Shown one piece after another: positions 30,211 to 58,602 of a stretch of 64,000 bases of DNA; positions within the stretch are counted from its first letter, which is position 1, and each line of letters opens with the position of its first letter. The DNA is taken from NCBI RefSeq assembly GCF_000223985.1, contig NZ_AFWV01000013.1, positions 124,001-188,000 of the forward strand, in the 5' to 3' direction. The stretch is from Thiocapsa marina 5811. Lineage in GTDB: Bacteria; Pseudomonadota; Gammaproteobacteria; Chromatiales; Chromatiaceae. The translations under genes were made by a program, and so were the position numbers. The notes beneath the pieces are model-generated. The model did no database searches and was not told where the DNA came from. It saw nothing but the letters and a program-made list of their open reading frames with translations.

Positions 30211-31800
30211 ATGATCTCCCTGCTCGACTACGGCGCCGGAAATGTGCGGAGCATCCGCAACGCCATCCACTCCTTGGGCTTCTCGCTGACCGAGATCGAG
30301 AAGCCGGCGGATATTCTCAAGGCGGAGCGGCTGATCTTCCCCGGCGTCGGTTCCTTCGGGGCGGCGATGCAGCGTCTGCATGCGCTGGGCTATCTCGAGC
30401 CCTTGCGCGAGTATCTCGCCGCGGGGCGACCCTATCTGGGGATCTGCATCGGCCTGCAGGCACTCTTCGAAGGCAGCGACGAGTCCCCCGGCGTGCCCGG
30501 GCTCGGGATCATTCCGGGGCGGATACGACGCTTCGACGCGGGCGCACTCGCCGTTCCGCACATGGGATGGAACGACGTGCGCGTCGAGCGCGACTCCCCC
30601 TTGTTCGCCGACTACGCCGGAGAGAAGCTCTACTTCGTGCATTCCTACTATGCCGAACCCACCGCCGAGAATCGGGACTGGCAGCTCGCCAAGACCGACT
30701 ACGGTCGGTCGTTTCTCAGCGCGGTGGAGCGAGGACGGATCTCCGCGGTTCAGTTTCACCCCGAGAAGAGCGCAAGCGCCGGGTTGCGGCTGCTGCGACG
30801 CTTTCTCGGCGGCGAGGATCGCCCGCTCCCCGAGACGACCCCCTCCGTCGATCGCAGTCCGACGCATCTGGCCAAGCGCATCATCGCCTGTCTGGACGTG
30901 CGCACCAACGATGCCGGTGATCTGGTCGTGACCAAAGGCGATCAGTACGACGTGCGCGAGGCCGGCGAGGTCCGCAATCTCGGCAAGCCGGTTGCGCTGG
31001 CCCAGCGCTATTACGAGGAGGGCGCCGACGAGATCACCTTCCTCAACATCACCGCCTTCCGTGACTTCCCCTTGGAGGATCAGCCGATGCTGGAGATCCT
31101 CGAGCGCACCTCGGAGCGCGTTTTCGTTCCGCTCACCATCGGCGGGGGAATCCGTGCCTTTCGCGATGCCCGCGGGAAGGACTATTCCGCATTGGACGTC
31201 GCCGACGCCTATTTCCGCTCCGGTGCCGATAAGATCTCGATCGGCTCGGATGCGGTCGAGGCCGTCGAAGGCTATCGGCAACGAGGAGCCAAAGACGGCA
31301 GCACGGCCATCGAGCAGATCGCCCGGGTCTACGGCAACCAGGCCGTGGTCATCTCCATCGACCCGCGTCGCGTCTATGTCCGCACGCCCGAGGAGACGCC
31401 CCATTACACCGTCGAGACCGCTGTGCCGGGACCCGATGGCGAGCGCTACTGTTGGTTTCAATGCACGATCAAGGGCGGACGCGAGGGTCGCGACGTCGAT
31501 GCCGTGGAGCTTGCGCGGGTCTGCGAGATCCTGGGAGCAGGCGAGATCCTGCTCAACTCGATCGACCGCGACGGCACGGGCGCGGGCTTCGATCTCGAGC
31601 TGATTCATGCCGTCAGATCGGCCGTCGGTATCCCGGTGATCGCCTCGAGCGGCGCAGGCTGTGTCGAGCACTTTGCGGAGGTGTTTGACGCGACCGATGT
31701 CGAAGCCGCGCTGGCCGCGGGGATCTTTCACCGGCGCGAGGTGCCGATTCAGGCCGTCAAGGCCTATCTCCTCGCCCGGGGGATCGAGATCCGAGCCTGA
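30211..31800 (+). CDS. hisHF: fused imidazole glycerol phosphate synthase (HisH-HisF)
   Basis: The protein combines the glutaminase HisH (1-210) and the cyclase HisF (220-529) in one 529-residue chain, making imidazole glycerol phosphate and AICAR in histidine synthesis. The glutaminase triad is C79 (GICIGLQ), H183 and E185 (QFHPEKS). The cyclase aspartates are D229 (ACLDVRTND) and D384 (SIDPRRVYV). The HisF half has the insertions and wording of the eukaryotic HIS7 enzyme (VTKGDQYDVRE, KGGREGRD). Most bacteria keep the two proteins separate. No other his gene is adjacent. Confidence 0.93.
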   Translation: MISLLDYGAGNVRSIRNAIHSLGFSLTEIEKPADILKAERLIFPGVGSFGAAMQRLHALGYLEPLREYLAAGRPYLGICIGLQALFEGSDESPGVPGLGIIPGRIRRFDAGALAVPHMGWNDVRVERDSPLFADYAGEKLYFVHSYYAEPTAENRDWQLAKTDYGRSFLSAVERGRISAVQFHPEKSASAGLRLLRRFLGGEDRPLPETTPSVDRSPTHLAKRIIACLDVRTNDAGDLVVTKGDQYDVREAGEVRNLGKPVALAQRYYEEGADEITFLNITAFRDFPLEDQPMLEILERTSERVFVPLTIGGGIRAFRDARGKDYSALDVADAYFRSGADKISIGSDAVEAVEGYRQRGAKDGSTAIEQIARVYGNQAVVISIDPRRVYVRTPEETPHYTVETAVPGPDGERYCWFQCTIKGGREGRDVDAVELARVCEILGAGEILLNSIDRDGTGAGFDLELIHAVRSAVGIPVIASSGAGCVEHFAEVFDATDVEAALAAGIFHRREVPIQAVKAYLLARGIEIRA

Positions 31801-32798: not shown

Positions 32799-32810
32799 TA
32801 ACGATTTACA

Positions 32811-32839
32811 GAATTATGAAATTTAATAGATCATAATTC
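32811..32839. promoter_or_regulatory. inverted repeat upstream of rnfB (second)
   Basis: Perfect 9-bp arms GAATTATGA/TCATAATTC separated by an 11-nt AT-only-rich spacer. This is among the most AT-rich DNA in the window and lies where the rnf operon promoter is expected. Confidence 0.55.
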
Positions 32840-32997: not shown

Positions 32998-33864
32998 ATG
33001 GCATCCATCTTCACCGCTGTCGGTTTCATGGCCGCTCTTGGTCTGCTGCTCGCCACGATCTTGATCCTGGCGAATCGACGGCTTTACGTCTACGAAGACC
33101 CGCGCATCGATCAGGTCGAAGACCTGCTGCCGCGCGCGAATTGCGGTGCCTGCGGGACTGCGGGCTGTCGCCCGTTCGCCGAGATGCTGGTCAAGGGCGA
33201 GATCGCGCCCGGTCGATGCACCGTGAACTCGCCCGCGACGAACAAACTCATCGCCGATTTTCTCGGCGTCGCGCTCGGCGCCGACGAGAAGCGGGTCGCA
33301 CGGCTTGCATGCTCCGGGGGGGCACACGTCGCCTTCCTGCGGGCCTCTTACGGCGGCCTGGAATCCTGTCGCGCAGCCGCCTTGGTCTCCGGCGGCGGCA
33401 AGGGCTGCTCCTGGGGCTGTCTCGGGATGGGCGATTGTGCCGAGGTCTGCGACTTCGATGCGATCCGACTCGATCGTCACGGCCTGCCGATCGTCGATAC
33501 CGCCAAGTGCACCGCCTGCGGTGATTGCGTCACCGTCTGTCCGAAGGATCTCTTCAGTCTGCATGCGATCAGTCACCGCCTCTGGGTCGCCTGCAAGAAC
33601 CTGGACCCGGGAGACGAGGGCGAGCATGAATGCGATGTCGTCTGCACCGCGTGCGGGCGCTGCGCTCAGGATTCGCCCGAGGGTTTGATCGAGATTCGCG
33701 ACAACCTGGCCGTCGTGGATTACACCAAGAACGCGCTCGCCTCGAAGGTCGCGATCGAGCGCTGCCCGACCGGCGCCATTGTTTGGCTCGAACCCGACGG
33801 TCGGATCATCAAAGGGAAGGACGCCAGAAAGGTGGTCCGCAAAGAGGCATTGCCGTTGGCTTGA
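32998..33864 (+). CDS. rnfB: Rnf complex iron-sulfur subunit RnfB (long type)
   Basis: RnfB is the likely electron entry subunit of the Rnf ferredoxin:NAD oxidoreductase. After an N-terminal membrane segment comes the C49-x2-C52-x4-C57-x16-C74 cluster motif. More clusters follow: CSWGCLGMGDCAEVC, CTACGDCVTVCP and CDVVCTACGRC. At 288 residues it is about 100 longer than the usual gammaproteobacterial RnfB and resembles those of strict anaerobes. It leads the operon; the RBS is weak. A giant PFOR, not rnfC, follows. Confidence 0.9.
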   Translation: MASIFTAVGFMAALGLLLATILILANRRLYVYEDPRIDQVEDLLPRANCGACGTAGCRPFAEMLVKGEIAPGRCTVNSPATNKLIADFLGVALGADEKRVARLACSGGAHVAFLRASYGGLESCRAAALVSGGGKGCSWGCLGMGDCAEVCDFDAIRLDRHGLPIVDTAKCTACGDCVTVCPKDLFSLHAISHRLWVACKNLDPGDEGEHECDVVCTACGRCAQDSPEGLIEIRDNLAVVDYTKNALASKVAIERCPTGAIVWLEPDGRIIKGKDARKVVRKEALPLA

Positions 33865-34007
33865 CGCCTCGGCCGGTATGACATCCGCCGCAACCGCTGC
33901 GCCCCGGAATCGGTCGTTCGAAGAATCGAAGCATCCACCCTGTCGTGCCCTCGAGCGCCGGCTTATCGCCGACGGCCGGGCCACCGGGTCAACCACAGAG
34001 AAGCCCC

Positions 34008-37000
34008 ATGTTCGGAAAGCCTATGTTCGGAAATAAGGACGAGAAACAGGTCAAGTATCCCGGCACACGGATGGCGATGGACGGCAATACCGCCGTCATC
34101 ATGTGCGAGCGCGAAGCCTCGGACGCCGCCGGCGCCTATCCCATTACGCCCTCCACACAGATGGGCGAGTATTGGGCCGAGGAGGTCGCGAAAGGCCATC
34201 TCAACGTGTCGGGAAACCCGCTGATCTTCGTCGAGCCCGAATCCGAGCATGCCGCGGCGGCCGTCACCGCCGGCATGTCCATGACCGGCCTGCGTGCGGT
34301 CAACTTCTCCTCTGCTCAGGGTGTGGCCTTCATGCACGAGTCGCTCTATGCGGCCGTCGGCAAGCGTCTGCCCTACGTGCTCAATATCGGCGCGCGTGCG
34401 ATCACCAAGTCCAGTCTGAACGTCCATTGCGCTCACGACGACTACCACTGCATCGACGACACCGGATTCACCCAGGTCTACGGCAAAAGCGCCCAAGAGG
34501 CGGCGGATCTGAATCTGATCGCCCGCAAGATCGCCGAGCTGACCCTCACCCCCGCCGCGGTCGGCCAGGACGGCTTTCTGACCACCCATCTGATCGAGCC
34601 GCTGCTCGTGCCCGAGCGTGAGCTGATCGCCGAGTTCTGCGGCCGCCCGGACGACATCATCGCGTGTCCGACGCCGGCCCAAAAGCTCGTTTACGGACCG
34701 ACTCGCCGCCGCGTTCCCATGGTTTGGGACGTCGACAACCCGGTGACGTCGGGCTCCGTGCAGAACCAAGACGCCTACATGCAGGCGGTCGCCGCACAGC
34801 GCCCGTACTTTTTCGATCACATCGAGCCGATTGCCGAGCAGGTCATGGATGAGTTCCATGCACTGACCGGGCGGCGCTATCAGCGCGTCAGCGGGTATCG
34901 CACGGAGGATGCCGACTACCTCATCCTCGGCCAAGGCAGCATGATCACCCAGGCCGAGGCGGTTGCGGATTATCTGCGCGAGACCCGCAAGCTCAAGATC
35001 GGCATCGTCAACCTCACCATGTATCGCCCCTTCCCGGGCGATCTCGTCGGGCAGATGCTCAAGGGCAGGAAGGGCGTGGCCGTGCTCGAGCGCACCGACC
35101 AGCCGCTGGCCGAAGACCTTCCCGTCATGCGCGAGATCCGAGCGGCCCTGACCAAGTGTCTGGAAAACGGCAGTATGGAGAAGGGCGAGCGCCTGCCCTA
35201 TCCGGACTACGCCGTCTACCGTCAGGGCGATATGCCGCGGCTCTATTCGGGCTGCTACGGTCTGGGCTCGCGGGATCTTCAGCCCGAGGGCCTGATCGCG
35301 GCGATCGAGAACATGCTCCCCGGTGCCGCGCAACGTAAATTCTTCTACCTGTCGGTCGACTTCATCCGCAAACCCTTTGATCCGAAGGACGAGATCCGCA
35401 TCCAAGCCCTCAAGGACGCCTATCCGCACATCGGCGAGCTCGCCCTGCGCGGCAGCGAAAACCCCAACCTCCTGCCCAAGGGCGCCATCACGGTGCGCAT
35501 GCACTCGGTCGGCGGCTGGGGCGCGGTCACGACAGGCAAGAACCTGGCGATGACCCTATACGATCTGCTCGGCTTCGACATCCGCGCCAACCCCAAGTAC
35601 GGCTCGGAGAAGAAGGGGCAACCGACCACCTACTTCCTCTCCGCCGCACCCGAGCCGATCCGGCTCAACTGCGAGTACACCTATGTCGACGTGGTGTTGA
35701 GCCCGGATCCGAACGTCTTCACGCACTCCAATCCGCTCGCCGGGTTGGATCGGGGAGGGCGCTTCATCGTCCAGTCGAGCCTCGACAACCCCGAGCAGGT
35801 CTGGGCCAGCTTCCCGCCGGCCGCGCGCAAATACATCGTCGAGCACGAGATCCGCGTCTACTACATCGACGGCTTCAAGATCGCCCGCGAAGAGGCATCC
35901 GATCCGGAGCTGCAGATCCGGATGCAGGGCAACACCTTCCAAGGCGCCTTCTTTGCCGCATCGCCGCTGATGGAGCGCGCCGGGCTCGACGAGGCCGGAC
36001 TCTTCGCCGCCATGGAGGAGCAGATCCGTCATAAGTTCGGCGCCAAGGGCGAGCGCGTCGTGCAGGACAACCTGCGCATCGTGCGCCGCGGTTTCGACGA
36101 GATCGTCGAGATCGTCGACAAACCCATGATCAGCGGCCAGCTGCTGCCGCGTAAGGAGGTCGGTCTCCCGGTCATGCTCAAGCAGTTGCCCGAAGGCGAC
36201 GGCGGCGTGACCGACGTGCATCGCTTCTGGGAGCAGACCGGCGCCTTCTACGCCAGCGGTCGCGGCAGCGACAATCTGGCCGATCCGCACATGGCCCTGT
36301 CGCTGATGCCCGCCTCCAGCGGCGTCTATCGCGACATGACGCAGATCCGCTTCACCTACCCCAAGTACGTGCCCGAGAACTGCACCGCCTGCGGCAACTG
36401 CTTCTCGGTCTGCCCCGACAGCGCCATCCCGGGCCTGGTCAACTCGGTCTCCGACATCTTCGCCGCCGCCATCGCACGGGTGGAGCGCGGCATGCCCACC
36501 CAGCATCTGCGTCGCGAGACCCGCAACGTCGAGAAACGTCTGCGCAAGCTCATCGACGCGGCCGGCGATTCGCCCGACATGCGCGCGTTGATGGACCAAG
36601 CAGTCCTGGAGACCCTGGCCGCCTATCAAGGCGAGCCCGAGCACAAGGCCGTAGTGGAGCAGGAGTTCGGCCTCATGATGCAGGCCCTCGGCGACTATCA
36701 ATTCGCCGTGACCAAGCCCTATTGGAGCAACCGCGAGAAGAAGCAAAAGGGTAGCGGCGGACTCTTCAGCATCACCGTCAATCCCTATACCTGCAAGGGC
36801 TGCAACGAGTGTATCGAGGTCTGCGACGACGGCGCCCTCGTCTCCGAGCCCCAGACGACGCAGACGATCGAAGAGATGCGCGCCAAGTGGGACTTCTGGC
36901 TCGATCTGCCGACCACGGCTCCGGACTTCATCCGCATCGATGATCTGGACGACAAGATCGGCGCACTCGAGACCTTGCTGCTGGACAAGTCCAACTATCA

Positions 37001-38945
37001 GGCGATGGTCTCGGGCGACGGCTCCTGTATGGGCTGCGGCGAGAAGACCGTGATCCACCTCTTCACGGCCACCGTCGCCGCGCTGATGCAGACCCGCGTG
37101 AAGCGCCACCTCGCCGAGATCGACGACCTGATCAATCGGCTCGAGACCCATGTGCGGCTTAAGCTGGCGGCCAAGATCGACCTGACCAACAGCGCCGCCA
37201 TCAGCAAAGCGGTCAACGCGCACAAGGACGCGGATCTGCGCCTGTCGGATCTGTCGGCCGAGCTGGATCAGGATCGCAGCGCCGAGCCCGTCGATCCCGA
37301 GTGGCTGACCTGGGTGACCGGTGTGCTCGACAAACTCCGGCACCTCAAGGCCCAGTACACCGCCGCCCAGCCGCGCTCGGCCATGGGCATCGTCAACGCC
37401 ACCGGCTGCTCCTCGGTCTGGGGTGCGACCTTCCCCTTCAACCCGTATCCCTTCCCCTGGTCGAACCACCTCTTCCAGGACTCGCCCTCGATGGCGCTCG
37501 GTCTCTTCGAAGGCCACATGCGCAAGATGGGCGAGGGCTTCAAGGCGATCCGCATGGCGCGCCTGGAGCTCGAGCGCGGCTACAATCCGGCCGAGCACGG
37601 CGAGGCCCTGACCTATTTCGGCTGGAAGGACTTCTCCGACGAGGAATGGCTGCTCTGTCCCCCGGTCGTCGCGGTCGGCGGCGACGGGGCTATGTACGAC
37701 ATCGGCTTCCAGAACCTCTCGCGTGCGCTCATGTCCGGCCATCCGGTGAAGATCATGGTGCTCGACACCCAGGTCTACTCCAACACGGGTGGTCAGTCCT
37801 GCACCTCCGGCTTCATCGGCCAGGTCGCGGACATGGCCCCCTACGGCAAGGTCGGCAAGGGCAAGACCGAGATCCGCAAGGAGATGGGGCTGATCGGCAT
37901 GGCCCATCGCACCAGCTTCGTGCTCAACGGTGCGGCCGCCAACCTCACGCACCTGCTCGAAGGCTTCATCGACGGACTCAATGCCCGTCACCCGGCGCTG
38001 TTCAACATCTACACCAGTTGTCAGCCCGAGCACGGCATCGGTGACGAGATGTCCACGCACCAAAGCCGCATGGCGATCGAGTCGCGTGCCTATCCGTTGT
38101 TCCGGTTCGACCCGGATGCCGGCACCAGCTTCGAGGAATGCTGCTCCATCGAGGGCAACCCGAGCATCGACCAGGATTGGATCAACTGGACGCTGAAGTA
38201 CACCGACGAGAAGGGCGAGCCGGCCGAGATGACCGTCCCCTTTACCTTTGCGGACTTCGCGATGACCGAGGGGCGCTTCCGCAAGCACTTCCGCAAGGCC
38301 CCGCCCGAGACCTGGAACGACTCCATGATCCCCATGGCCGAGTTCCTGGAGATGGACGAGGACGCGCGCGTCGGACACTTCCCCTACGTCTGGGGCGTGG
38401 ACGCCAAGAACCGCTTGATGCGCGTCCTGGTCTCCCAAGAACTGGTCGAGTCCTGCGAAGAGCGTCGCGCCTTCTGGACGCAGCTGCGCGGGATCTGCGG
38501 ACACCTCAACAAGGTCGACGTCGAGCAGGTACGCAACCAGGCCAAGGCCGAGATGGCGCAGAAGCTCACCAGTAGCCTACTCGCCATGGCGGGCGGCGAC
38601 GCGGGGGCGCTGGCGACCTTGGCGGGCGGCGGCAACGGCAACGGTGCCGCGGCAGCCGGCGGCAACGGCGCCGGCAACGGCAACGGGGCGTCCGACTGGG
38701 AGGCGGTCTGGGTCGAAACACCCGAGTGCACCGCCTGCGACGAGTGCATCACGATCAATCCCAAGATCTTCAAGTACAACGGCGAGAAGAAGGTCGAGGT
38801 GATCGATCCCAAGGGCGGCTCCTATCAGGACATCGTCAAGGCCGCCGAGAAGTGCACAGCCGGCTGCATCCACCCCGGGACGCCGTGGAATCCGGCCGAG
38901 GCGGGACTCGATAAGCTGCTCAAGCGGGCGGCGAAGTACCAGTAG
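34008..38945 (+). CDS. giant pyruvate:ferredoxin oxidoreductase with fused ferredoxin, within the rnf operon
   Basis: This 1645-residue protein oxidises a 2-oxoacid, probably pyruvate, to acyl-CoA and reduced ferredoxin. It has the PFOR order: YPITPST (44-50), gamma domain (VGGWGAVTTGKN), ferredoxin clusters at C792-C802 and C929-C939, TPP domain with C1007, C1010, C1134, C1338 and D1226 in GGDGAMYD. It exceeds a normal PFOR by about 450 residues: an insert between the two clusters, a helical insert before C1134, and a Gly/Asn/Ala linker (about 1527-1561) leading to an extra ferredoxin (C1574, C1577, C1580, C1616/C1620). ATG 34008 has GAGAAG upstream; ATG 34023 is possible. It lies between rnfB and rnfC. 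Confidence 0.9.
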   Translation: MFGKPMFGNKDEKQVKYPGTRMAMDGNTAVIMCEREASDAAGAYPITPSTQMGEYWAEEVAKGHLNVSGNPLIFVEPESEHAAAAVTAGMSMTGLRAVNFSSAQGVAFMHESLYAAVGKRLPYVLNIGARAITKSSLNVHCAHDDYHCIDDTGFTQVYGKSAQEAADLNLIARKIAELTLTPAAVGQDGFLTTHLIEPLLVPERELIAEFCGRPDDIIACPTPAQKLVYGPTRRRVPMVWDVDNPVTSGSVQNQDAYMQAVAAQRPYFFDHIEPIAEQVMDEFHALTGRRYQRVSGYRTEDADYLILGQGSMITQAEAVADYLRETRKLKIGIVNLTMYRPFPGDLVGQMLKGRKGVAVLERTDQPLAEDLPVMREIRAALTKCLENGSMEKGERLPYPDYAVYRQGDMPRLYSGCYGLGSRDLQPEGLIAAIENMLPGAAQRKFFYLSVDFIRKPFDPKDEIRIQALKDAYPHIGELALRGSENPNLLPKGAITVRMHSVGGWGAVTTGKNLAMTLYDLLGFDIRANPKYGSEKKGQPTTYFLSAAPEPIRLNCEYTYVDVVLSPDPNVFTHSNPLAGLDRGGRFIVQSSLDNPEQVWASFPPAARKYIVEHEIRVYYIDGFKIAREEASDPELQIRMQGNTFQGAFFAASPLMERAGLDEAGLFAAMEEQIRHKFGAKGERVVQDNLRIVRRGFDEIVEIVDKPMISGQLLPRKEVGLPVMLKQLPEGDGGVTDVHRFWEQTGAFYASGRGSDNLADPHMALSLMPASSGVYRDMTQIRFTYPKYVPENCTACGNCFSVCPDSAIPGLVNSVSDIFAAAIARVERGMPTQHLRRETRNVEKRLRKLIDAAGDSPDMRALMDQAVLETLAAYQGEPEHKAVVEQEFGLMMQALGDYQFAVTKPYWSNREKKQKGSGGLFSITVNPYTCKGCNECIEVCDDGALVSEPQTTQTIEEMRAKWDFWLDLPTTAPDFIRIDDLDDKIGALETLLLDKSNYQAMVSGDGSCMGCGEKTVIHLFTATVAALMQTRVKRHLAEIDDLINRLETHVRLKLAAKIDLTNSAAISKAVNAHKDADLRLSDLSAELDQDRSAEPVDPEWLTWVTGVLDKLRHLKAQYTAAQPRSAMGIVNATGCSSVWGATFPFNPYPFPWSNHLFQDSPSMALGLFEGHMRKMGEGFKAIRMARLELERGYNPAEHGEALTYFGWKDFSDEEWLLCPPVVAVGGDGAMYDIGFQNLSRALMSGHPVKIMVLDTQVYSNTGGQSCTSGFIGQVADMAPYGKVGKGKTEIRKEMGLIGMAHRTSFVLNGAAANLTHLLEGFIDGLNARHPALFNIYTSCQPEHGIGDEMSTHQSRMAIESRAYPLFRFDPDAGTSFEECCSIEGNPSIDQDWINWTLKYTDEKGEPAEMTVPFTFADFAMTEGRFRKHFRKAPPETWNDSMIPMAEFLEMDEDARVGHFPYVWGVDAKNRLMRVLVSQELVESCEERRAFWTQLRGICGHLNKVDVEQVRNQAKAEMAQKLTSSLLAMAGGDAGALATLAGGGNGNGAAAAGGNGAGNGNGASDWEAVWVETPECTACDECITINPKIFKYNGEKKVEVIDPKGGSYQDIVKAAEKCTAGCIHPGTPWNPAEAGLDKLLKRAAKYQ

Positions 38946-38964
38946 GCTCACCACGACGCGCAAT

Positions 38965-38991
38965 CGCATCGGACCCGTCGGGCCCGATGCG
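38965..38991 (+). terminator. intercistronic hairpin before rnfC
   Basis: Stem CGCATCGG/CCGATGCG, extended inward by three further pairs around one mismatch. There is no T run after it. It may attenuate or stabilise the transcript between the PFOR gene and rnfC rather than end it. Confidence 0.45.
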
Positions 38992-39030
38992 GTGCGCGAT
39001 CCCGATCCCAACCCAACACAGCAGTCACGC

Positions 39031-40377
39031 ATGGGTCTTTTCAGTCTCTTCCAGCGCCATCGCACCTTCGACCACGGCATCTACCCGGTCGAGCACAAGG
39101 AGCTGACGGCGGACAAGCCGATCCGGCGGCTCCCCTTCGCGCCCGAGCTGGTCATCCCGCTCGCCCAACATAAGGGGGCGCCGGCCGTTCCTCTGGTCAA
39201 GGTCGGCCAGGAGGTCGTCCGCGGCGAGCCGATCGCCCGCGCCGAAGGTTTCGTGTCGGTGCCCATGCATGCCCCTGCGACCGGGGTGATCCGGGCGATC
39301 GCACTGACGCCCACCGCCGACGGCCCCAAGACCTCGGCCATCTTTCTCAAGGTCTACGAGGCCGCAAGCCAAGAGGTCCTCTATGACCTGGAGCGCGACC
39401 TCGACGCCATGACGCCCGAGGAGATCGTCGCGGCCGTGCAGGATGCAGGGCTGGTCGGACTCGGGGGCGCGGCCTTCCCGAGCCACGTCAAGATGAAGCC
39501 CCCGGCGGGCAAGCTCATCGAGACGGTCGTCGTCAACGGCTGCGAGTGCGAGCCCTATCTGACTTGCGACCATCGGATCATGCTCGAGCAGAGCGATGCC
39601 TTGATTCGCGGCATCAAGCTCGCGCTCAAGGCGACGGGCGCCAAGCGGGCGATCATCGGTGTGGAGGACAACAAGCTCGATGCGGTCGCCCATCTACGAG
39701 CGGTCATCCCGAAGGATCTTCCCATCACCGCGGAAGCCGTGGAGACGAAGTATCCGCAGGGCGCGGAGAAGATGCTCATCAAGAGCCTTCTGCGCAAAGA
39801 GGTTCCGGTCGGTGGTCTGCCGGCCGACATCGGTGTCGCGGTCTACAACGTCGGAACACTCGCCCAAATGGGCGATCTCTTGCCGCAGGGCAGGGGACTG
39901 ATCGAGCGCGTCGTCACCGTGAGCGGTCCGGCGGTATCCAATCCGGGCAACTTCATGGTCCCGATCGGCACACCCTTGCGGTTCCTGCTCGGACAGGTCG
40001 GGCTCGCAGAGGATCGCGTCGGCGAGGTCATCCTCGGCGGTCCCATGATGGGCATGGCCGTCGCCTCGCTCGATGTGCCGGTGACCAAGGCCGTCTCGGG
40101 TGTCGTCGCCCTGGAACGGGAGGACCCGGATCTGGACCGGCGCAAGGTCTACCCCTGCATCAAGTGCGCCGAATGTCTCAAGGCCTGTCCGGTCTCGCTC
40201 AATCCGTCGATGCTCGGCGAGCTCGCGCTGGCCCGCCAATACGATCGCATGGCCGAGGAATTCAACCTGGATCAATGCTTCGAATGCGGCTGCTGCGCCT
40301 ATGTGTGCCCATCCAACATCCCGCTGACGCAGTATTTCCGGATCGCCAAATCGATCAATCGAGATCGCAATGCCTAA
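39031..40377 (+). CDS. rnfC: Rnf complex subunit RnfC
   Basis: RnfC is the peripheral subunit that binds NADH and FMN and exchanges electrons with the other Rnf subunits. It has the GLGGAAFPSHVK FMN region, NGCECEPYLTCDH, and two cluster motifs starting at C376 (CIKCAECLKACP) and C416 (CFECGCCAYVCP). The length of 448 residues lacks the long Ala/Lys-rich tail of E. coli RsxC. ATG 39031 is chosen over an upstream GTG. The end overlaps rnfD by 8 nt. Confidence 0.95.
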   Translation: MGLFSLFQRHRTFDHGIYPVEHKELTADKPIRRLPFAPELVIPLAQHKGAPAVPLVKVGQEVVRGEPIARAEGFVSVPMHAPATGVIRAIALTPTADGPKTSAIFLKVYEAASQEVLYDLERDLDAMTPEEIVAAVQDAGLVGLGGAAFPSHVKMKPPAGKLIETVVVNGCECEPYLTCDHRIMLEQSDALIRGIKLALKATGAKRAIIGVEDNKLDAVAHLRAVIPKDLPITAEAVETKYPQGAEKMLIKSLLRKEVPVGGLPADIGVAVYNVGTLAQMGDLLPQGRGLIERVVTVSGPAVSNPGNFMVPIGTPLRFLLGQVGLAEDRVGEVILGGPMMGMAVASLDVPVTKAVSGVVALEREDPDLDRRKVYPCIKCAECLKACPVSLNPSMLGELALARQYDRMAEEFNLDQCFECGCCAYVCPSNIPLTQYFRIAKSINRDRNA

Positions 40378-41419
40378 ACCCATCGAAATCAGAACCTCCC
40401 CGCATTTGAAGCGGGCGCTCAGCGTCGACCGCATCATGCGCAATGTGGTCTTTGCGCTGCTGCCGATCTGCGCCTTCGCGGTCTTTCAATTCGGGCTGAG
40501 CGCCCTGCTCCTGATCCTCACCACCACCGGTGCGGCAATCGCGACCGAGTGGTTTTTCGCGCGGGCGAGCGGGCGGGGCAACACCGTCTCGGATTGGTCG
40601 GTCGTCATCACCGGCATCCTGCTTGCGTTGACCTTGCCTCCCGGCTTCCCGCTCTGGATGGCGGCGGTCGCGGCCTTCGTCGGCGTGGCCTTGGGCAAGG
40701 CGCTCTTCGGCGGGCTGGGCTACAACGTCATGAATCCGGCCTTGGTCGGACGCGCCTTCGTGCAGGCGGCCTTCCCGGTCGCGATCACGACCTGGACGCC
40801 GGCGTTCGCGCCCGGCCGCTTTACCGAGGTCATCCCCTCGACCTTCACGCTGCCCTTCATGCAGCCGATCCCGGTCAAGGATTGGGTCGCGGCTCTGCAG
40901 CTCGATGCCTGGACCGGCGCCACGCCGCTCGCGTTGCAGAAGTTCCAGCAGATCGAGCCATCCGTTACCGATGTCTTCACCGGGATGATCGCGGGCTCCG
41001 CCGGCGAGACCTCCGCGCTCTTGATCCTGATCTGCGGACTCTGGCTTGCCTTCAAACGCATGCTGGACTGGCGCATCCCCGTCGCCGTGATGGCTGGTGC
41101 CGCACTCACGGCGCTGCCGTTTTGGCTCATGGACAGCAGCCTCTATCCGAGCCCCTGGTTCGTGCTCTTCTCGGGCGGACTCATGCTCGGGGCCTGGTTC
41201 ATGGCGAGCGACATGGTCGCCTCGCCGGTCACCACCAGCGGCGTCATCCTCTACGGGCTCTTCATCGGCATCGTGACGGTTGTCATCCGACTGTTCGGCG
41301 GGCTCGTGGAGGGCGTGATGTACGCGATCCTGCTCGCCAATGCAGCCGGACCCTTGATCTCGAGCTGGACACAGCCACGGGTCTACGGTGCGCTCAAAAA
41401 GACGCGGGAGGCGGAATAG
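40370..41419 (+). CDS. rnfD: Rnf complex membrane subunit RnfD
   Basis: RnfD is a membrane subunit related to NqrB, with about ten helices and a covalently bound FMN. The flavin threonine is expected at T185 in TGATPLAL. The NPALVGRAFVQAAFP and GAWFMASDMVASPVT blocks are family hallmarks. The length of 349 residues is normal. It overlaps rnfC at its start and ends 3 bp before rnfG. Confidence 0.95.
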   Translation: MPKPIEIRTSPHLKRALSVDRIMRNVVFALLPICAFAVFQFGLSALLLILTTTGAAIATEWFFARASGRGNTVSDWSVVITGILLALTLPPGFPLWMAAVAAFVGVALGKALFGGLGYNVMNPALVGRAFVQAAFPVAITTWTPAFAPGRFTEVIPSTFTLPFMQPIPVKDWVAALQLDAWTGATPLALQKFQQIEPSVTDVFTGMIAGSAGETSALLILICGLWLAFKRMLDWRIPVAVMAGAALTALPFWLMDSSLYPSPWFVLFSGGLMLGAWFMASDMVASPVTTSGVILYGLFIGIVTVVIRLFGGLVEGVMYAILLANAAGPLISSWTQPRVYGALKKTREAE

Positions 41420-41422
41420 CCG

Positions 41423-42127
41423 ATGAGTATCAAGGTCGAGCTTCAAACACAATCACAACCGGGCCCCGGTACACAGGTCGCACCGAGCTGGCCGATGTTG
41501 CGCACCCTGGCCGGCATCGCGATCCTCTCGGGCCTCTTGGTGGTCCTCGTCTATCAGGCGACCAAGCCCATCATTACCGAGAACGAGCGGATCCTGACCG
41601 AGCAGGCGGTCTTCGAAGTCCTGCCGGGCGCCGTTTCGAAGGTCGATTTCGTGCTGACCGAGCAAGGTTTGGCTCCGGCGGGCGAGGGGGCCGTCGGCAT
41701 GGCCGTGTTCGTCGGTTTCGGGGCCGATGCAGAGCTGCGGGGCGTGGCCTTCCCGGGCGCGGCGCGGGGCTATCAGGACGTGATCCAGTTCCTCTTCGGC
41801 TACGATCCCGCTTGCGAATGTATCGTCGGCAGCAAGGTCTTGCGATCGACCGAGACACCGGGGCTGGGGGACAAGATCGACACGGATCCGGTCTTTCTCG
41901 AGAACTTCGTTGCGCTCGACGCCAGCCTGAACCCCGCGGGCACCGCCTTGGCCAATCCGATTGTCCTGGTCGCGCACGGCACCAAGACCGCACCCTGGCA
42001 GATCGACGGCATCTCGGGCGCGACCATCTCCGGCAAGGCGATGGCACGTGCGGCCAACGACGCCGCGGAGCGATTCGTGCCGAGCATTCGCAGGGATCTC
42101 GCCAAGCTCGCCGCGGCAGCGCCGTGA
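41423..42127 (+). CDS. rnfG: Rnf complex subunit RnfG
   Basis: RnfG is a single-span membrane protein with a periplasmic domain that carries FMN on a threonine, here T201 in ISGATISGKAM. The membrane segment is about residues 27-50. GYDPACECIVG and TETPGLGDKI match the family. The length of 234 residues is usual. FMN attachment would need an ApbE flavin transferase, which is not in this window. Confidence 0.95.
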   Translation: MSIKVELQTQSQPGPGTQVAPSWPMLRTLAGIAILSGLLVVLVYQATKPIITENERILTEQAVFEVLPGAVSKVDFVLTEQGLAPAGEGAVGMAVFVGFGADAELRGVAFPGAARGYQDVIQFLFGYDPACECIVGSKVLRSTETPGLGDKIDTDPVFLENFVALDASLNPAGTALANPIVLVAHGTKTAPWQIDGISGATISGKAMARAANDAAERFVPSIRRDLAKLAAAAP

Positions 42128-42160
42128 TCAGAACCCTCTTCGCGCAACGAGGCACGACCC

Positions 42161-42823
42161 ATGGCTGAATTGCCCAATCCGCAAGAAAACCTGAGCCTGG
42201 ATACCTTCCTGAGGGGGCTCTGGACCGAGAATCCGGTCTTCGCGATGCTGCTCGGCATGTGTCCGGTGCTGGCCGTCACCAACTCGACCATGAACGCCAT
42301 CGCGATGGGGCTGGCCACGACCTTCGTGCTGGTGTGCTCGAGCCTGTTGATCTCGCTGCTGCGCAACTGGATCCCCAAACAGGTCCGCATCGCCAGCTAC
42401 ATCATCATCATCGCGACCTTCGTCACCATCGTCGACTACGGGATTCAGGCGATCAGCCTCGAGCTCTACGCCGCACTCGGTGCCTTCATTCAGCTGATCG
42501 TGGTGAACTGCGTCATCCTCGGGCGCGCCGAGGCCTATGCCTCGAAACAGCGACTGCATACGACGCTCGTCAACAGTCTCGGGATGGGCGCGGGATTCAC
42601 CATCGCACTGCTCGCACTCGGCACCGTTCGGGAGATCCTCGGCAGCGGAAGCATTCTCGGTGTCGCGCTGTTCGGAGAGGGCTTCCAACCCTGGGTCGTG
42701 ATGATTCTTCCGCCGGGCGGCTTCTTCGTGCTCGGGGCGTGGTTGCTGCTCTTCAACTGGCTACGTCTGCGCAAGGAACGCAAGGTCATGGAACAATCCG
42801 GAGTCGCCGCAAATGCAGGATGA
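42161..42823 (+). CDS. rnfE: Rnf complex membrane subunit RnfE
   Basis: RnfE is one of two related six-helix membrane subunits (with RnfA), homologous to NqrD. Together they hold an iron-sulfur centre in the membrane. LGMCPVLAVT carries the conserved cysteine in the first helix, and VVNCVILGRAEAYAS the second. The length of 220 residues fits. The last 11 nt overlap rnfA. Confidence 0.95.
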   Translation: MAELPNPQENLSLDTFLRGLWTENPVFAMLLGMCPVLAVTNSTMNAIAMGLATTFVLVCSSLLISLLRNWIPKQVRIASYIIIIATFVTIVDYGIQAISLELYAALGAFIQLIVVNCVILGRAEAYASKQRLHTTLVNSLGMGAGFTIALLALGTVREILGSGSILGVALFGEGFQPWVVMILPPGGFFVLGAWLLLFNWLRLRKERKVMEQSGVAANAG

Positions 42824-43403
42824 ATCGCTCTACTTCATCTTTCTGAATGCCGCTGTCGTCAACAACTTCGTCTTGGCGCTCTTTCTCGGCATTTGCCCGT
42901 TCCTCGGTGTCTCGGCGAAAAAAGACACCGCCTGGAACATGGGGCTGGCGGTCATCTTCGTGATGCTGGTGAGCTCCATGAGCGCCTACGGGATCAATTG
43001 GCTCTTGACCGAGCTGGATCTGCTCTTCCTGCGGCTCATCTGCTATATCGCGGTGATCGCCTCGGCGGTGCAATTGGTCGAGATGTTCGTCAAGCGCTAC
43101 AGCCCCGCGCTGTTTCGCTCGCTCGGTATCTTCCTGCCCTTGATCACAACCAACTGCGCCATCCTGGGTCTCGCGCTCTTTCAAACCGCGAAGGAATACG
43201 ACTTCATACAGAGTCTGATCTATGCGCTCGGCGCGGGGGCCGGCTTTATGCTGGCCTTGATGCTGATGGCCGGGCTGCGCGAGAAGCTCGAGCTCGCCCG
43301 CGTACCCAGCGTCAGCCAGGGCGCGGCCATGAGCCTCATGCTGGCGGGACTTCTCTCGCTCGCCTTCATGGGCTTCGCCGGGCTCGGAGGCTCGCATGGT
43401 TAA
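42813..43403 (+). CDS. rnfA: Rnf complex membrane subunit RnfA
   Basis: RnfA is the partner of RnfE and a homologue of NqrE. The cysteines in FLGICPFLGVS and TTNCAILGLALF are the expected ligands of the intramembrane iron centre. The length of 196 residues and six helices are normal. The order rnfB-...-C-D-G-E-A resembles the CDGEA(B) order of anaerobes rather than the ABCDGE order of enterobacteria. Its stop overlaps the next small gene. Confidence 0.95.
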   Translation: MQDESLYFIFLNAAVVNNFVLALFLGICPFLGVSAKKDTAWNMGLAVIFVMLVSSMSAYGINWLLTELDLLFLRLICYIAVIASAVQLVEMFVKRYSPALFRSLGIFLPLITTNCAILGLALFQTAKEYDFIQSLIYALGAGAGFMLALMLMAGLREKLELARVPSVSQGAAMSLMLAGLLSLAFMGFAGLGGSHG

Positions 43404-43563
43404 GGTGCTCTCGGCCTCGCTGGTCATCTTTGCGGTGCTCGCGGCGTGGGTCCTGGTGGAACGCATCTATGCCGGCTTCGCCGCCCGTCATCCGGAGCTC
43501 GGACCCTTCCGACGCAACGACGGCGGCTGTTCATGCGGCAGCGGGAGTTGCGAACGGCGGTGA
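43396..43563 (+). CDS. 55-residue Cys-rich single-span membrane protein (NqrM/FeoB-associated-like)
   Basis: This very short gene starts inside the end of rnfA (8-nt overlap) with GGAGG 5 nt upstream. The product has one membrane helix (about 5-24), a short linker and a C-terminal Gly/Ser/Cys tail with C45, C47 and C52 (CSCGSGSC). The layout resembles NqrM, which is needed to mature Na+-NQR, and the FeoB-associated Cys-rich membrane proteins. A role in delivering iron to the RnfA/RnfE centre is my inference; the overlap with rnfA suggests it belongs to the complex. Confidence 0.7.
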   Translation: MVKVLSASLVIFAVLAAWVLVERIYAGFAARHPELGPFRRNDGGCSCGSGSCERR

Positions 43564-43706
43564 TTGTCAATCGCCGGGCCGATTCGGGCCTGAGACCGAA
43601 AGCGGGCATTTTTCAGCTTCTTCGTCGCGGATGCGACGGCGAATCATCACATCCATCTCGTCTCGGCTCCGATGGGGCCGACAAAGTTATAAGGAGCAGC
43701 TAAACC

Positions 43707-44567
43707 ATGAGTGAAGCCCCGGCCGATTTGGGCCCGACGACTCAGGCGTTCATCAAGGATTCCAGGCGAATCACACCCGAGAGATCCGAAGAGGTCCGCC
43801 ACATCACCCTTCAGGTGGCCGATCCGGCTTTTCAATTCGTCGAAGGTCAAAGCATCGGCGTGATCGTTCCCGGCCCGCATCCGTTCGGCAATCCGTACCA
43901 TATCCGGCGTTATTCGATTGCAAACGCACGCAGTCTTCCGGTCGACACCGGGGTCGAGATCGATCTTCTGGTACGCCGCTGCTTCTACATCGACGAGGTC
44001 AGCGGAGAGCGCTATCCGGGCATCGCCTCGAACTATCTTTGCGACGCGAAGACGGGCGCCGCATTGACGATCAACGGCCCCTATCTGAGTCCCTTCAAGA
44101 TGCCGTTGGACAATCGCGCCAACCTGCTCATGATCGGGACCGGGACCGGCATCGCACCTTTCCGTGCCTTCGCGCAGCTGATTTACGAGCGGCGCGGCGA
44201 TTGGAAGGGGCAGGTTCGGCTCTATTACGGTGGCCGCAGCGGGCTGGATCTCATGTACACCAACGACGAGAGCACCGATCTCGCCAACTATTACGACGAG
44301 AAGACCTTCAAGGCGTTCCGGGCCCTCGGCACGCGCCCCTTGATGACGTCCTCGCAAGCCTTGGAGCGCGGTCTATCCGACAACGCCGAGGATGCGTTGC
44401 AGCTCATCAAAGAACCCGACACGCATGTCTTCCTGTCTGGACTGGGCAAGATTGCAGCGGTGTTCGATAAGGTGATGGCGGATCGGGTTGGATCGTCCGA
44501 GGAGTGGACGGCGATCAAGCAAAAGATGATCGACGAGGGACATTGGTCCGAGCTGATTTACGATTGA
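43707..44567 (+). CDS. fpr: plant-type ferredoxin:NADP reductase
   Basis: This FAD enzyme passes electrons between ferredoxin and NADP(H). The FAD-binding RRYSIAN and NADP-binding GTGTGIAPFRAF motifs are present, and the C-terminal EGHWSELIYD resembles the aromatic end of plastid-type FNRs more than bacterial Fpr. The length is 286 residues. AAGGAG lies about 11 nt before the ATG. It is separated from the small Cys protein by 143 bp but in the same direction, so it is plausibly part of the rnf-PFOR redox module. Confidence 0.88.
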   Translation: MSEAPADLGPTTQAFIKDSRRITPERSEEVRHITLQVADPAFQFVEGQSIGVIVPGPHPFGNPYHIRRYSIANARSLPVDTGVEIDLLVRRCFYIDEVSGERYPGIASNYLCDAKTGAALTINGPYLSPFKMPLDNRANLLMIGTGTGIAPFRAFAQLIYERRGDWKGQVRLYYGGRSGLDLMYTNDESTDLANYYDEKTFKAFRALGTRPLMTSSQALERGLSDNAEDALQLIKEPDTHVFLSGLGKIAAVFDKVMADRVGSSEEWTAIKQKMIDEGHWSELIYD

Positions 44568-53646: not shown

Positions 53647-57251
<3,605 letters not shown>

Positions 57252-57255
<4 letters not shown>

Positions 57256-57585: not shown

Positions 57586-58602
57586 ATGGATCTCACCACC
57601 AACTATCTCGGGCTGACGATCAAGAATCCGCTGGTTCCTTCCGCCTCGCCGCTGTCCAAGAGTGTGGCCATCGCGCGCGAGCTCGAAGACCACGGTGCGG
57701 CGGCCATCATCATGTGGTCACTCTTCGAGGAGGCCGTCACCGCCGAATCCGAGAGCATGGTGCGCTTTCTGCACCACCAGGACATCGGCTTCGGCGAGGC
57801 CGAGAGCGGCTTTCTGCCCGCCCATCATGACTTCGAAGGCGCACTCGAGCGCTATCTGGAGAACATCCGCAAGCTCAAGGACGCACTGGACATCCCGGTC
57901 ATCGCCAGCCTCAACGGCGTCACGCCCGGCGGCTGGATCAAGCACGCAACCGAGCTGCAACAAGCCGGGGCCGACGCCCTCGAGCTCAACGTCTACTATG
58001 TCGCCGGCGATGTGACCCAAACCGGACTCCAGGTCGAAGAGCGTTACCTCGACCTCCTGCGCGCGCTGCGCGGGCACATCCAGATCCCGATCAACATGAA
58101 GCTCTCCCCGAGCTTCAGCTCCATCGGCAACTTCGTCGGCCAGGTCGCGGCGGCAGGCGCCAACGGAGTGGCTCTCTTCAATCGTTTCTACCAGCCCGAC
58201 ATCAACATCGACAGCCTGCGTCTTCAATCGAGCCTGCACCCCTCGACCTCCGCCGAGGCCCTGCTCGCCATGCGCTGGATCGCGATCCTCTACGGGCGCT
58301 TCGACGGCCTCTCGCTCGGCGCGACCGGCGGCGTACACACCTCCGCGGACGCTATCAAGCTCCTGCTCGCAGGCGCCGACGTGGTGCACCTGTGCAGCGC
58401 GCTCCTCGGCAAAGGACCGGCTTACACCGCGCAGATCCTCGCGGGGATCCAAGACTGGATGGAGGAGCAGGGATTCGAGTCCGTGGACGACTTCCGCGGT
58501 CGCGTCAGCGCCATCTCGGTCCCCAACCCGGCCGAGCTCGAGCGCGCCAACTACGTCAACATCCTGGACAGCTACAGCTTCTCGCCGGGTGTGATGGTTT
58601 AG
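57586..58602 (+). CDS. dihydroorotate dehydrogenase-like flavoprotein
   Basis: This 338-residue TIM-barrel protein belongs to the DHOD superfamily and commonly follows nifJ. It starts with NYLGLTIKNPLVPSASPLSKS and has the FMN phosphate loop GATGGVHTSADAIKLLLAGADVV. The usual NxxCPN catalytic block reads ELNVYYVAGD, so the catalytic Cys/Ser of true PyrD is missing; pyrimidine synthesis is unlikely. Its substrate is unknown. The context suggests a role with PFOR. GGAG lies upstream of the ATG. Confidence 0.85.
   Translation: MDLTTNYLGLTIKNPLVPSASPLSKSVAIARELEDHGAAAIIMWSLFEEAVTAESESMVRFLHHQDIGFGEAESGFLPAHHDFEGALERYLENIRKLKDALDIPVIASLNGVTPGGWIKHATELQQAGADALELNVYYVAGDVTQTGLQVEERYLDLLRALRGHIQIPINMKLSPSFSSIGNFVGQVAAAGANGVALFNRFYQPDINIDSLRLQSSLHPSTSAEALLAMRWIAILYGRFDGLSLGATGGVHTSADAIKLLLAGADVVHLCSALLGKGPAYTAQILAGIQDWMEEQGFESVDDFRGRVSAISVPNPAELERANYVNILDSYSFSPGVMV

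What the first reader, a model, noticed from the sequence alone, without database searches (positions are those of the whole stretch)
32998..44567. PFOR-Rnf-FNR operon: a 2-oxoacid oxidoreductase embedded inside an Rnf cluster
The order is rnfB, a giant PFOR, rnfC-D-G-E-A, a tiny Cys-rich membrane protein and a plant-type ferredoxin:NADP reductase, all on one strand with overlaps from rnfC onward. PFOR reduces ferredoxin and Rnf oxidises it to pump ions and reduce NAD, so placing PFOR between the two peripheral iron-sulfur subunits suggests direct electron channelling, possibly a physical supercomplex. Seen: order, motifs and spacing. Inference: channelling and complex formation. It could also run in reverse, with ion-driven ferredoxin reduction feeding CO2 fixation into pyruvate.
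Basis: partly seen in the sequence, partly recalled or inferred. Interest (0 to 1): 0.85.

Follow-up and report, generated by a model that had tools for sequence, protein, structure and literature searches.

The report
Ferredoxin-armed oxidoreductase within Rnf operon
A giant pyruvate-type enzyme carrying its own ferredoxin on a flexible arm is encoded inside the gene set of an ion-pumping electron complex, and this arrangement recurs in related bacteria, which suggests that the two machines pass electrons directly to each other.

Summary
The operon is real: rnfB, a giant 2-oxoacid:acceptor oxidoreductase (OFOR), rnfCDGEA, a small Cys-rich protein and an FNR-like gene, on one strand at 32998-44567, in a Thiocapsa-type genome. 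It is not unique. Among the 80 named loci most similar to the OFOR, rnfB precedes and rnfC follows it in 62 of the 62 with enough sequence on both sides. None of 40 ordinary rnfC loci examined has an OFOR nearby.

The enzyme is a divergent OFOR, far below the PFOR cut-off. It ends in a ferredoxin on a low-complexity arm, and its RnfB lacks the ligands of one terminal cluster.

A sister cluster, korAB-p840-rnfB-OFOR-(sucCD)-rnfCDGEA, keeps an apparently dead OFOR between rnfB and rnfC: 16 of 16 keep all eight medial and distal Fe-S cysteines, 0 of 16 any proximal one. Best reading: the OFOR body is an electron-delivering arm of Rnf. Physical association is not shown. A 2014 genome paper noted the gene order in one symbiont; the arm, the dead scaffold and the breadth were not seen in the passages read or listings of ten searches.

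The parts
32805..32834 (+). sigma-70-like promoter match upstream of rnfB
   Evidence: 3 matches found in the region against a shuffle mean of 2.2, so weak
32998..33864 (+). rnfB, 288 aa, polyferredoxin subunit; lacks four Cys of the terminal cluster aligned in solved RnfB of 9eri and 7zc6
34008..38945 (+). giant 2-oxoacid:acceptor oxidoreductase (OFOR), 1645 aa from ATG 34008 (ORF opens at GTG 33945); catalytic residues intact
36381..36824 (+). two [4Fe-4S] motifs of the OFOR (C792-C802, C929-C939), called medial and distal here, with a helical insert between them
37683..37793 (+). TPP-binding core (GGDG...YSNTGGQ) of the OFOR
38592..38693 (+). Gly/Ala/Asn-rich flexible arm (residues 1529-1562, pLDDT below 50)
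38694..38942 (+). C-terminal tethered [4Fe-4S] ferredoxin domain, like D. africanus ferredoxin I
39031..40377 (+). rnfC, 448 aa from ATG 39031 (ORF opens at GTG 38992)
40370..41419 (+). rnfD
41423..42127 (+). rnfG (below the TIGR01947 cut-off, FMN_bind domain present)
42161..42823 (+). rnfE
42813..43403 (+). rnfA
43396..43563 (+). 55-aa protein with one hydrophobic stretch (by eye) and a Cys-rich tail; homologues in 45 of 52 loci with enough downstream sequence
43707..44567 (+). plant-type FNR-like flavoprotein (no NCBIfam cut-off reached); present in 23 of 52 loci with enough downstream sequence

Best explanation
The operon encodes a dedicated 2-oxoacid:NAD oxidoreductase pump. The giant OFOR exchanges electrons between a 2-oxoacid/acyl-CoA pair (most likely pyruvate/acetyl-CoA) and its three internal [4Fe-4S] clusters. 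A ferredoxin fused to its C-terminus on a flexible arm then shuttles electrons to and from RnfB, and the Rnf membrane part couples this to NAD(H) and ion transport. Shown: the gene order and its conservation, the intact catalytic and Fe-S residues, the fused ferredoxin domain, the RnfB cysteine loss, and a sister cluster that keeps an OFOR without its catalytic residues in the same place. Inferred: that the arm serves RnfB rather than the bulk ferredoxin pool, that the proteins touch, that the substrate is pyruvate, and the direction. I favour the reductive direction (ion gradient plus NADH driving pyruvate synthesis) in autotrophic hosts, at about 0.55.
For: Order: rnfB upstream in 71 of 71, rnfC downstream in 66 of 66, both in 62 of 62, CDGEA order in 51 of 52 testable loci of the 80 closest named ones. 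Control: 0 of 40 ordinary rnfC loci have an OFOR within the stretch examined (31 at 1.5 kb; nine more, and eleven of the 31 again, with 2.7-5.5 kb on each side for most). Fused ferredoxin: four-Cys motif in 77 of 78 ORFs, the other cut by its contig; arm mean column identity 0.21 against 0.74 for body and ferredoxin; arm pLDDT about 30, domain 77-91; fold match to 1fxr at 1.1 A. Dead scaffold: 16 of 16 sister OFORs keep eight medial/distal Cys, 0 of 16 any proximal Cys or the TPP Asn; KorB motifs intact in 14 of 14 found, KorA YPITP in 13 of 14. RnfB: reduced Cys set in both types against 9eri/7zc6. RnfC of both types on one side of a branch, 100/100. PEP synthase directly downstream in 12 of 80 loci.
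Against: No complex was modelled or seen; an operon does not prove contact. The 80 loci are the best 80 of at least 566 relatives, so they say nothing about more distant ones. In 7 of 72 loci the OFOR-rnfC gap exceeds 400 bp, up to 1354, so small intervening genes are possible. L093 has rnfB at the far end of the cluster. L112, an OFOR fragment at 53% identity, has no rnf in 18 kb downstream. Related OFORs sit beside a PRK12779-family protein (L108, L116) or are split without rnf (L103-L107). The genome also has a canonical PFOR and two other rnfC genes. The substrate is not fixed by sequence. No transcript or activity data for this organism. The model is moderate (pLDDT 70.6, pTM 0.64).
Confidence: 0.6

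Rival explanations
1. Shared pool: the operon only co-regulates an OFOR and an Rnf that communicate through ordinary soluble ferredoxins; the fused ferredoxin merely speeds exchange with the pool.
For: Rnf and PFOR are classically linked by soluble ferredoxin (recalled); clustering of functionally linked genes is common; no contact was shown.
Against: An OFOR without catalytic residues kept in the cluster in 16 of 16 sister loci, with wire cysteines kept; position inside the rnf set in 62 of 62; reduced RnfB Cys set shared by both types.
Confidence: 0.25
2. Reverse-only module: Rnf spends the ion gradient to supply electrons for pyruvate synthesis (acetyl-CoA + CO2), feeding PEP synthase for carbon assimilation; it does not run oxidatively in these hosts.
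For: A PEP synthase gene lies directly downstream on the same strand in 12 of 80 loci (the L174 copy is over the TIGR01418 cut-off); several named hosts are known lithoautotrophs (recalled from their names); Rnf reversal is proposed for Rhodobacter nitrogenase (recalled).
Against: FNR instead in 23 of 52 loci, the window included in kind; 0 of the 11 PEP-synthase loci counted there have FNR. MAGs titled Verrucomicrobia, Spirochaetaceae and Acidobacteria also carry the cluster, so one direction for every host is doubtful.
Confidence: 0.3
3. The substrate is not pyruvate but another 2-oxoacid (2-oxoglutarate or a branched or aryl 2-oxoacid), the genome's canonical PFOR handling pyruvate.
For: The canonical 1202-aa PFOR is present at 53647-57255; the giant OFOR is far below the PFOR cut-off; the sister cluster carries korAB and, in part of the loci, sucCD and mdh, pointing to 2-oxoglutarate there.
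Against: PEP synthase directly downstream in 12 of 80 type-1 loci; best solved match by sequence is Moorella PFOR.
Confidence: 0.3

Closest known systems
Rnf complex (RnfABCDGE; solved in 7zc6, 8ahx, 9eri)
   Same: All six subunits present; RnfC aligns nearly full length to 7zc6_C (E=3.8e-111); RnfB to 9eri_B and 7zc6_B.
   Different: An OFOR gene lies between rnfB and rnfC; RnfB lacks four Cys of the terminal cluster; RnfC falls apart from 31 ordinary Pseudomonadota rnfC on a tree. Gene order of the 20 ordinary clusters looked at runs A-B-C-D.
Pyruvate:ferredoxin oxidoreductase (NifJ type; 6cin, 1b0p)
   Same: Domain order, TPP motif and twelve Cys for three clusters.
   Different: About 27% identity to the genome's own canonical PFOR over aligned columns, extra inserts, a flexible arm and a fused ferredoxin; 402 of the 911 bits required by TIGR02176.
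rnfB2-PFOR-rnfC2 of the Solemya velum symbiont (PMC4287430)
   Same: The same arrangement, noted in one sentence with pyruvate as possible Rnf electron donor (passages read); a S. velum symbiont record is L153 of our set.
   Different: The passages seen call it pyruvate:ferredoxin oxidoreductase and mention no fused ferredoxin, recurrence or dead sister enzyme.
Desulfovibrio africanus ferredoxin I (1fxr, 1dax)
   Same: The C-terminal domain matches it by sequence (E=1.7e-6) and fold (1.1 A, TMt 0.83, Foldseek E 0.017).
   Different: Here it is covalently tethered to the OFOR rather than free.

Membership tests
Rnf complex | Six subunits A, B, C, D, G, E encoded together | tested here: met
   RnfG below its TIGR cut-off (83.1 against 102) but has FMN_bind
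Rnf complex | NADH/FMN domain and 4Fe-4S motifs in RnfC | tested here: met
   Complex1_51K, RnfC_N, SLBB and Fer4 domains; match to 7zc6_C over residues 25-454
Rnf complex | Full set of RnfB clusters as in 9eri/7zc6 (8ahx has a short RnfB without them, so not universal) | tested here: not met
   four Cys of the terminal cluster absent from the window's RnfB; 72 of 74 type-1 RnfB have no Cys there and two have one; 16 of 16 type 2 have none
Rnf complex | Ion transport coupled to ferredoxin:NAD electron transfer | not testable with these tools
   needs membrane vesicles
Canonical PFOR (TIGR02176) | Score above curated cut-off 911 bits | tested here: not met
   402.1 bits; the canonical paralogue scores 1744.5
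OFOR superfamily (TPP 2-oxoacid:acceptor oxidoreductases) | TPP Asp/Asn, substrate-binding Thr and Arg, proximal-cluster Cys | tested here: met
   on the window and four relatives; E64, TPP D and N, Arg and all four proximal Cys 78 of 78; Thr 78 of 78 too, but the set was picked by the motif that holds it; residue roles recalled from D. africanus PFOR
Plant-type ferredoxin:NADP reductase | Curated NCBIfam cut-off | tested here: not met
   best NF045929 131 of 600 bits; NADP specificity open
OFOR-Rnf supercomplex | Physical association of OFOR with RnfB/RnfC | not testable with these tools
   no complex prediction or proteomics available

The most novel reading that the evidence does not exclude
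OFOR-Rnf is a stable membrane supercomplex: a new class of ion-motive 2-oxoacid:NAD oxidoreductase in which electrons travel by a tethered ferredoxin arm and never enter the soluble ferredoxin pool. It arose once, then split into a self-contained pyruvate form and a form in which KorAB took over catalysis while the dead OFOR was kept as the electron-conducting dock.
Probability: 0.45. Interest if true: 0.87.

Novelty: new variant of a known kind. Interest (0 to 1): 0.74.

Why it matters
If true, central carbon metabolism is plugged straight into a respiratory ion pump in purple sulfur bacteria, sulfur and iron oxidisers and animal symbionts. It would offer a way for ferredoxin-dependent carboxylation to work without a free ferredoxin pool, give a candidate role to one of the A. 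vinosum rnf clusters whose role that genome paper called 'entirely unclear' (that A. vinosum itself has this cluster was not checked, two other Allochromatium species do), and suggest that a 'PFOR-like' isoform reported in tubeworm symbionts may be a non-catalytic electron conductor (identity not checked). It is testable in cultured strains.

Tried and rejected
Canonical PFOR identity: rejected by family cut-off. One-off rearrangement: rejected. Chance adjacency of any OFOR to any rnf: rejected by control (0 of 40). My first control used only the 29 best-scoring of 38 matches outside the window's genome plus two from it, with 1.5 kb flanks; since OFOR-linked RnfC scores low, I added the nine lower-scoring ones and re-read eleven with wider flanks. 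The control covers one phylum. Co-evolution by distance correlation (57 loci with all six genes): OFOR against RnfB/C/D r 0.78-0.82, the same as among these Rnf subunits, but lower for RnfE and RnfA (0.72, 0.52), and no unlinked control, so given little weight. Promoter/terminator scan: at chance level. The N-terminal OFOR tree puts type 2 beside type 1 with only 93/89 support and long branches. FNR coenzyme specificity was read by eye and left open. My first ferredoxin pattern (56 of 78) was too strict (it demanded IHPG); the plain four-Cys motif gives 77 of 78. Two residue rows (Arg and third proximal Cys) were mis-located and were redone. L153 (S. velum symbiont) has OFOR and rnfB hits in shifted frames, described only; it and L185 (missed by my anchor motif) are the two of 80 not in the 78.
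Full report
What is there. The window holds rnfB, a 1645-aa OFOR, rnfC, D, G, E, A, a 55-aa Cys-rich protein and an FNR-like gene, all on the + strand from 32998 to 44567. The window's genome (G000, 62 contigs) carries two further rnfC genes in clusters of the ordinary order and one canonical PFOR at 53647-57255. The genus is inferred to be Thiocapsa: same-genus genomes G002 and G005 hold the OFOR on contigs whose lengths equal contigs titled T. roseopersicina DSM 217 and T. imhoffii DSM 21303.

The enzyme. The OFOR scores 402 bits against the PFOR model (cut-off 911) and is about 27% identical to the canonical paralogue over aligned columns. It keeps the substrate-binding Thr and Arg, the TPP Asp and Asn and the twelve cysteines of three clusters (residue roles in D. 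africanus PFOR, and the names medial and distal, are recalled). It has extra segments, the largest being a 99-residue insert, helical in the model, and a C-terminal extension. The extension is a Gly/Ala/Asn-rich stretch followed by a single-cluster ferredoxin domain. By sequence it is closest in the PDB to D. africanus ferredoxin I (E=1.7e-6), and by fold to 1fxr (rmsd 1.1 A, TMt 0.83, although the Foldseek E-value is only 0.017). That ferredoxin is, from recall, a partner of D. africanus PFOR. The model (residues 735-1645, pLDDT 70.6, pTM 0.64) leaves the linker disordered (pLDDT about 30) and the ferredoxin ordered (77-91).

Conservation. Of these 80, 78 gave an ORF of 1590-1760 aa with my anchor motif; 77 of 78 have the four-Cys ferredoxin motif, and the exception, L142, is cut by its contig. 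The linker is the least conserved of the three parts compared (mean column identity 0.21 with 54% gaps, against 0.74 for body and ferredoxin) and is 72% G/A/P/S/N/T/Q against 41% in the body; the composition figures come from the 56 sequences that matched my stricter pattern. rnfB lies just upstream in 71 of 71 and rnfC just downstream (within 1.5 kb) in 66 of 66 loci with enough sequence; both in 62 of 62; C-D-G-E-A order in 51 of 52, L199 being the failure. The rnfB-OFOR gap is at most 238 bp; the OFOR-rnfC gap is over 400 bp in 7 of 72. The small protein was found in 45 of 52, FNR in 23 of 52 and PEP synthase in 11 of these 52, never with FNR. Record titles outside Pseudomonadota number 13 of 80, all MAGs, so binning errors are possible. 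In whole-genome searches 27 of 56 relatives and 30 of 369 class genomes had a match at the thresholds used; these include the other types. Exceptions: L093 has rnfB after FNR; L112, an OFOR fragment cut by its contig, has no rnf in 18 kb downstream.

Control. In a 60-genome phylum sample 39 genomes had an rnfC match at E 1e-60, 41 matches in all with the window's three. All 38 matches outside the window's genome and its two other rnfC were examined: 31 with 1.5 kb flanks, nine more with wider ones. None of the 40 has an OFOR piece, and the 20 wide ones have no canonical PFOR either. On an RnfC tree of 73 rows (31 ordinary, 29 type 1, 13 type 2) the OFOR-linked types lie together on one side of a branch (100/100), as does type 1 (100/99) and, less firmly, type 2 (95/68). 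The ordinary rows come from Pseudomonadota only, so wider placement is open.

The sister cluster. A second arrangement (16 loci, L098-L102, L118, L233-L242) reads korA-korB-p840-rnfB-OFOR-(sucC-sucD)-rnfCDGEA-(mdh), with contig or fetch ends cutting some loci; sucCD were seen between OFOR and rnfC in L101, L102, L233, L236 and L237 and after the OFOR in L240, whose contig piece ends there. Its OFOR is roughly 27-32% identical to the window's. In 16 of 16 the eight medial and distal cluster cysteines are kept. In 0 of 16 are any of the four proximal cysteines, the substrate Thr, the Glu, or the TPP Asn kept; the TPP Asp survives in 7 and the Arg in 12 of 16. Three of them (L236-L238) show no match over roughly residues 508-723, about where the gamma domain lies. 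KorB motifs are intact in 14 of 14 loci where it was found, KorA YPITP in 13 of 14. p840 resembles the C-terminal part of the giant OFOR and ends in the same kind of ferredoxin domain after an Ala/Pro/Glu-rich stretch; the motif was found in 14 of 16: in L101 the ferredoxin part aligned in a separate piece, and L118 has no kor or p840 in the 3.5 kb upstream. An OFOR that has lost its catalytic residues but keeps its electron wire and its place between rnfB and rnfC is the strongest argument that the OFOR body has a structural and electron-conducting role at Rnf. This is inference from sequence.

A third arrangement and the unlinked relatives. In L108 and L116 a related OFOR, with a tethered ferredoxin-like tail, is followed by a protein over the PRK12779 cut-off (glutamate-synthase-beta-like NAD(P)-binding family; a likeness to NfnB is recalled) and no rnf; L116 is cut at its start. 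The one split two-gene OFOR whose end I read, L103, stops where the linker would start and has no ferredoxin; none of the five split loci L103-L107 has rnf nearby. The ferredoxin arm thus goes with a dedicated redox partner in the few cases seen.

RnfB. The 74 type-1 RnfB hits over 230 aa (of 78 hits) and all 16 of type 2 keep C216, C219, C222 and C256. Of the four other cysteines of the last ferredoxin-like pair, aligned in 9eri_B and 7zc6_B, 72 of 74 have none and two have one; 16 of 16 type 2 have none. So one terminal cluster appears lost in both types. It may mark a changed electron entry; that role is inferred.

Substrate and direction. A PEP synthase gene starts 198-371 bp after rnfA (aligned start) on the same strand in 12 of 80 loci, at most 209 bp after the small protein in the 11 where that was found; in L191 it aligns in two pieces. 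The L174 copy is over the TIGR01418 and PRK06464 cut-offs; the others were found by similarity to it. That favours pyruvate, and pyruvate synthesis rather than breakdown. In the window's own genome the PEP synthase lies on another contig. The type 2 neighbours sucCD and mdh point to 2-oxoglutarate there. A CysB-like LysR gene was found at 58% identity or more in 22 of 80 loci, upstream and divergent. Sequence alone does not settle either question.

What is in print. Ten searches of the PMC open library were made (no bioRxiv held). PMC4287430 (passages read) states for the Solemya velum symbiont that pyruvate:ferredoxin oxidoreductase genes lie between rnfB2 and rnfC2 and that pyruvate may feed that Rnf. 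PMC3368242 (passages) calls the role of the Rnf complexes of A. vinosum 'entirely unclear'. PMC6315080 (passages) reports korAB beside TCA genes in a tubeworm symbiont, and Rnf genes in the rTCA cluster. [quoted passage not shown] this would fit one type 2 operon, but I did not check the gene identity. PMC6593406 and PMC4914600 (passages) list Rnf, PFOR and PEP synthase in sulfur oxidisers without this arrangement in the passages seen. No passage seen describes the tethered ferredoxin, the dead OFOR or the breadth. Other listed papers were seen as listings only; subscription papers are mostly not held, and the main Rnf review was not available.

Verdict.

Noticed in passing
L098-L102, L118, L233-L242: Sister clusters korA-korB-p840-rnfB-OFOR-(sucCD)-rnfCDGEA-(mdh); the OFOR has lost its catalytic residues but keeps eight Fe-S cysteines in 16 of 16.
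   Followed up: yes
L108:4722-12796, L116:1-6582: A related OFOR with a tethered ferredoxin-like tail is followed by a PRK12779-family (glutamate-synthase-beta-like) NAD(P)-binding protein instead of Rnf.
   Followed up: partly
window 53647-57255 and 57586-58602: Canonical 1202-aa PFOR followed by a dihydroorotate-dehydrogenase-domain gene; in L105 an ORF of the same size follows the canonical PFOR too (by eye).
   Followed up: no
window 30211-31800: One ORF with a glutamine amidotransferase domain followed by a histidine-biosynthesis domain, apparently a fused HisH-HisF.
   Followed up: no
window 43396-43563: Small protein with HPELGP motif and Cys-rich tail, conserved after rnfA; may be a maturation factor for the RnfA/RnfE metal site, by analogy with NqrM (recalled).
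   Followed up: partly
L153 9352-14912: In this Solemya velum symbiont record rnfB and the OFOR match in shifted frames; could be assembly error or decay.
   Followed up: no
L199 15018 onward: Verrucomicrobia MAG with rnfB-OFOR-rnfC-rnfD but no rnfG, E or A found by tblastn in the remaining 7.6 kb.
   Followed up: no
L112 1-1936: OFOR C-terminal fragment at 53% identity with no rnf in 18 kb downstream; sugar-metabolism-type genes appear to follow instead (by eye).
   Followed up: no
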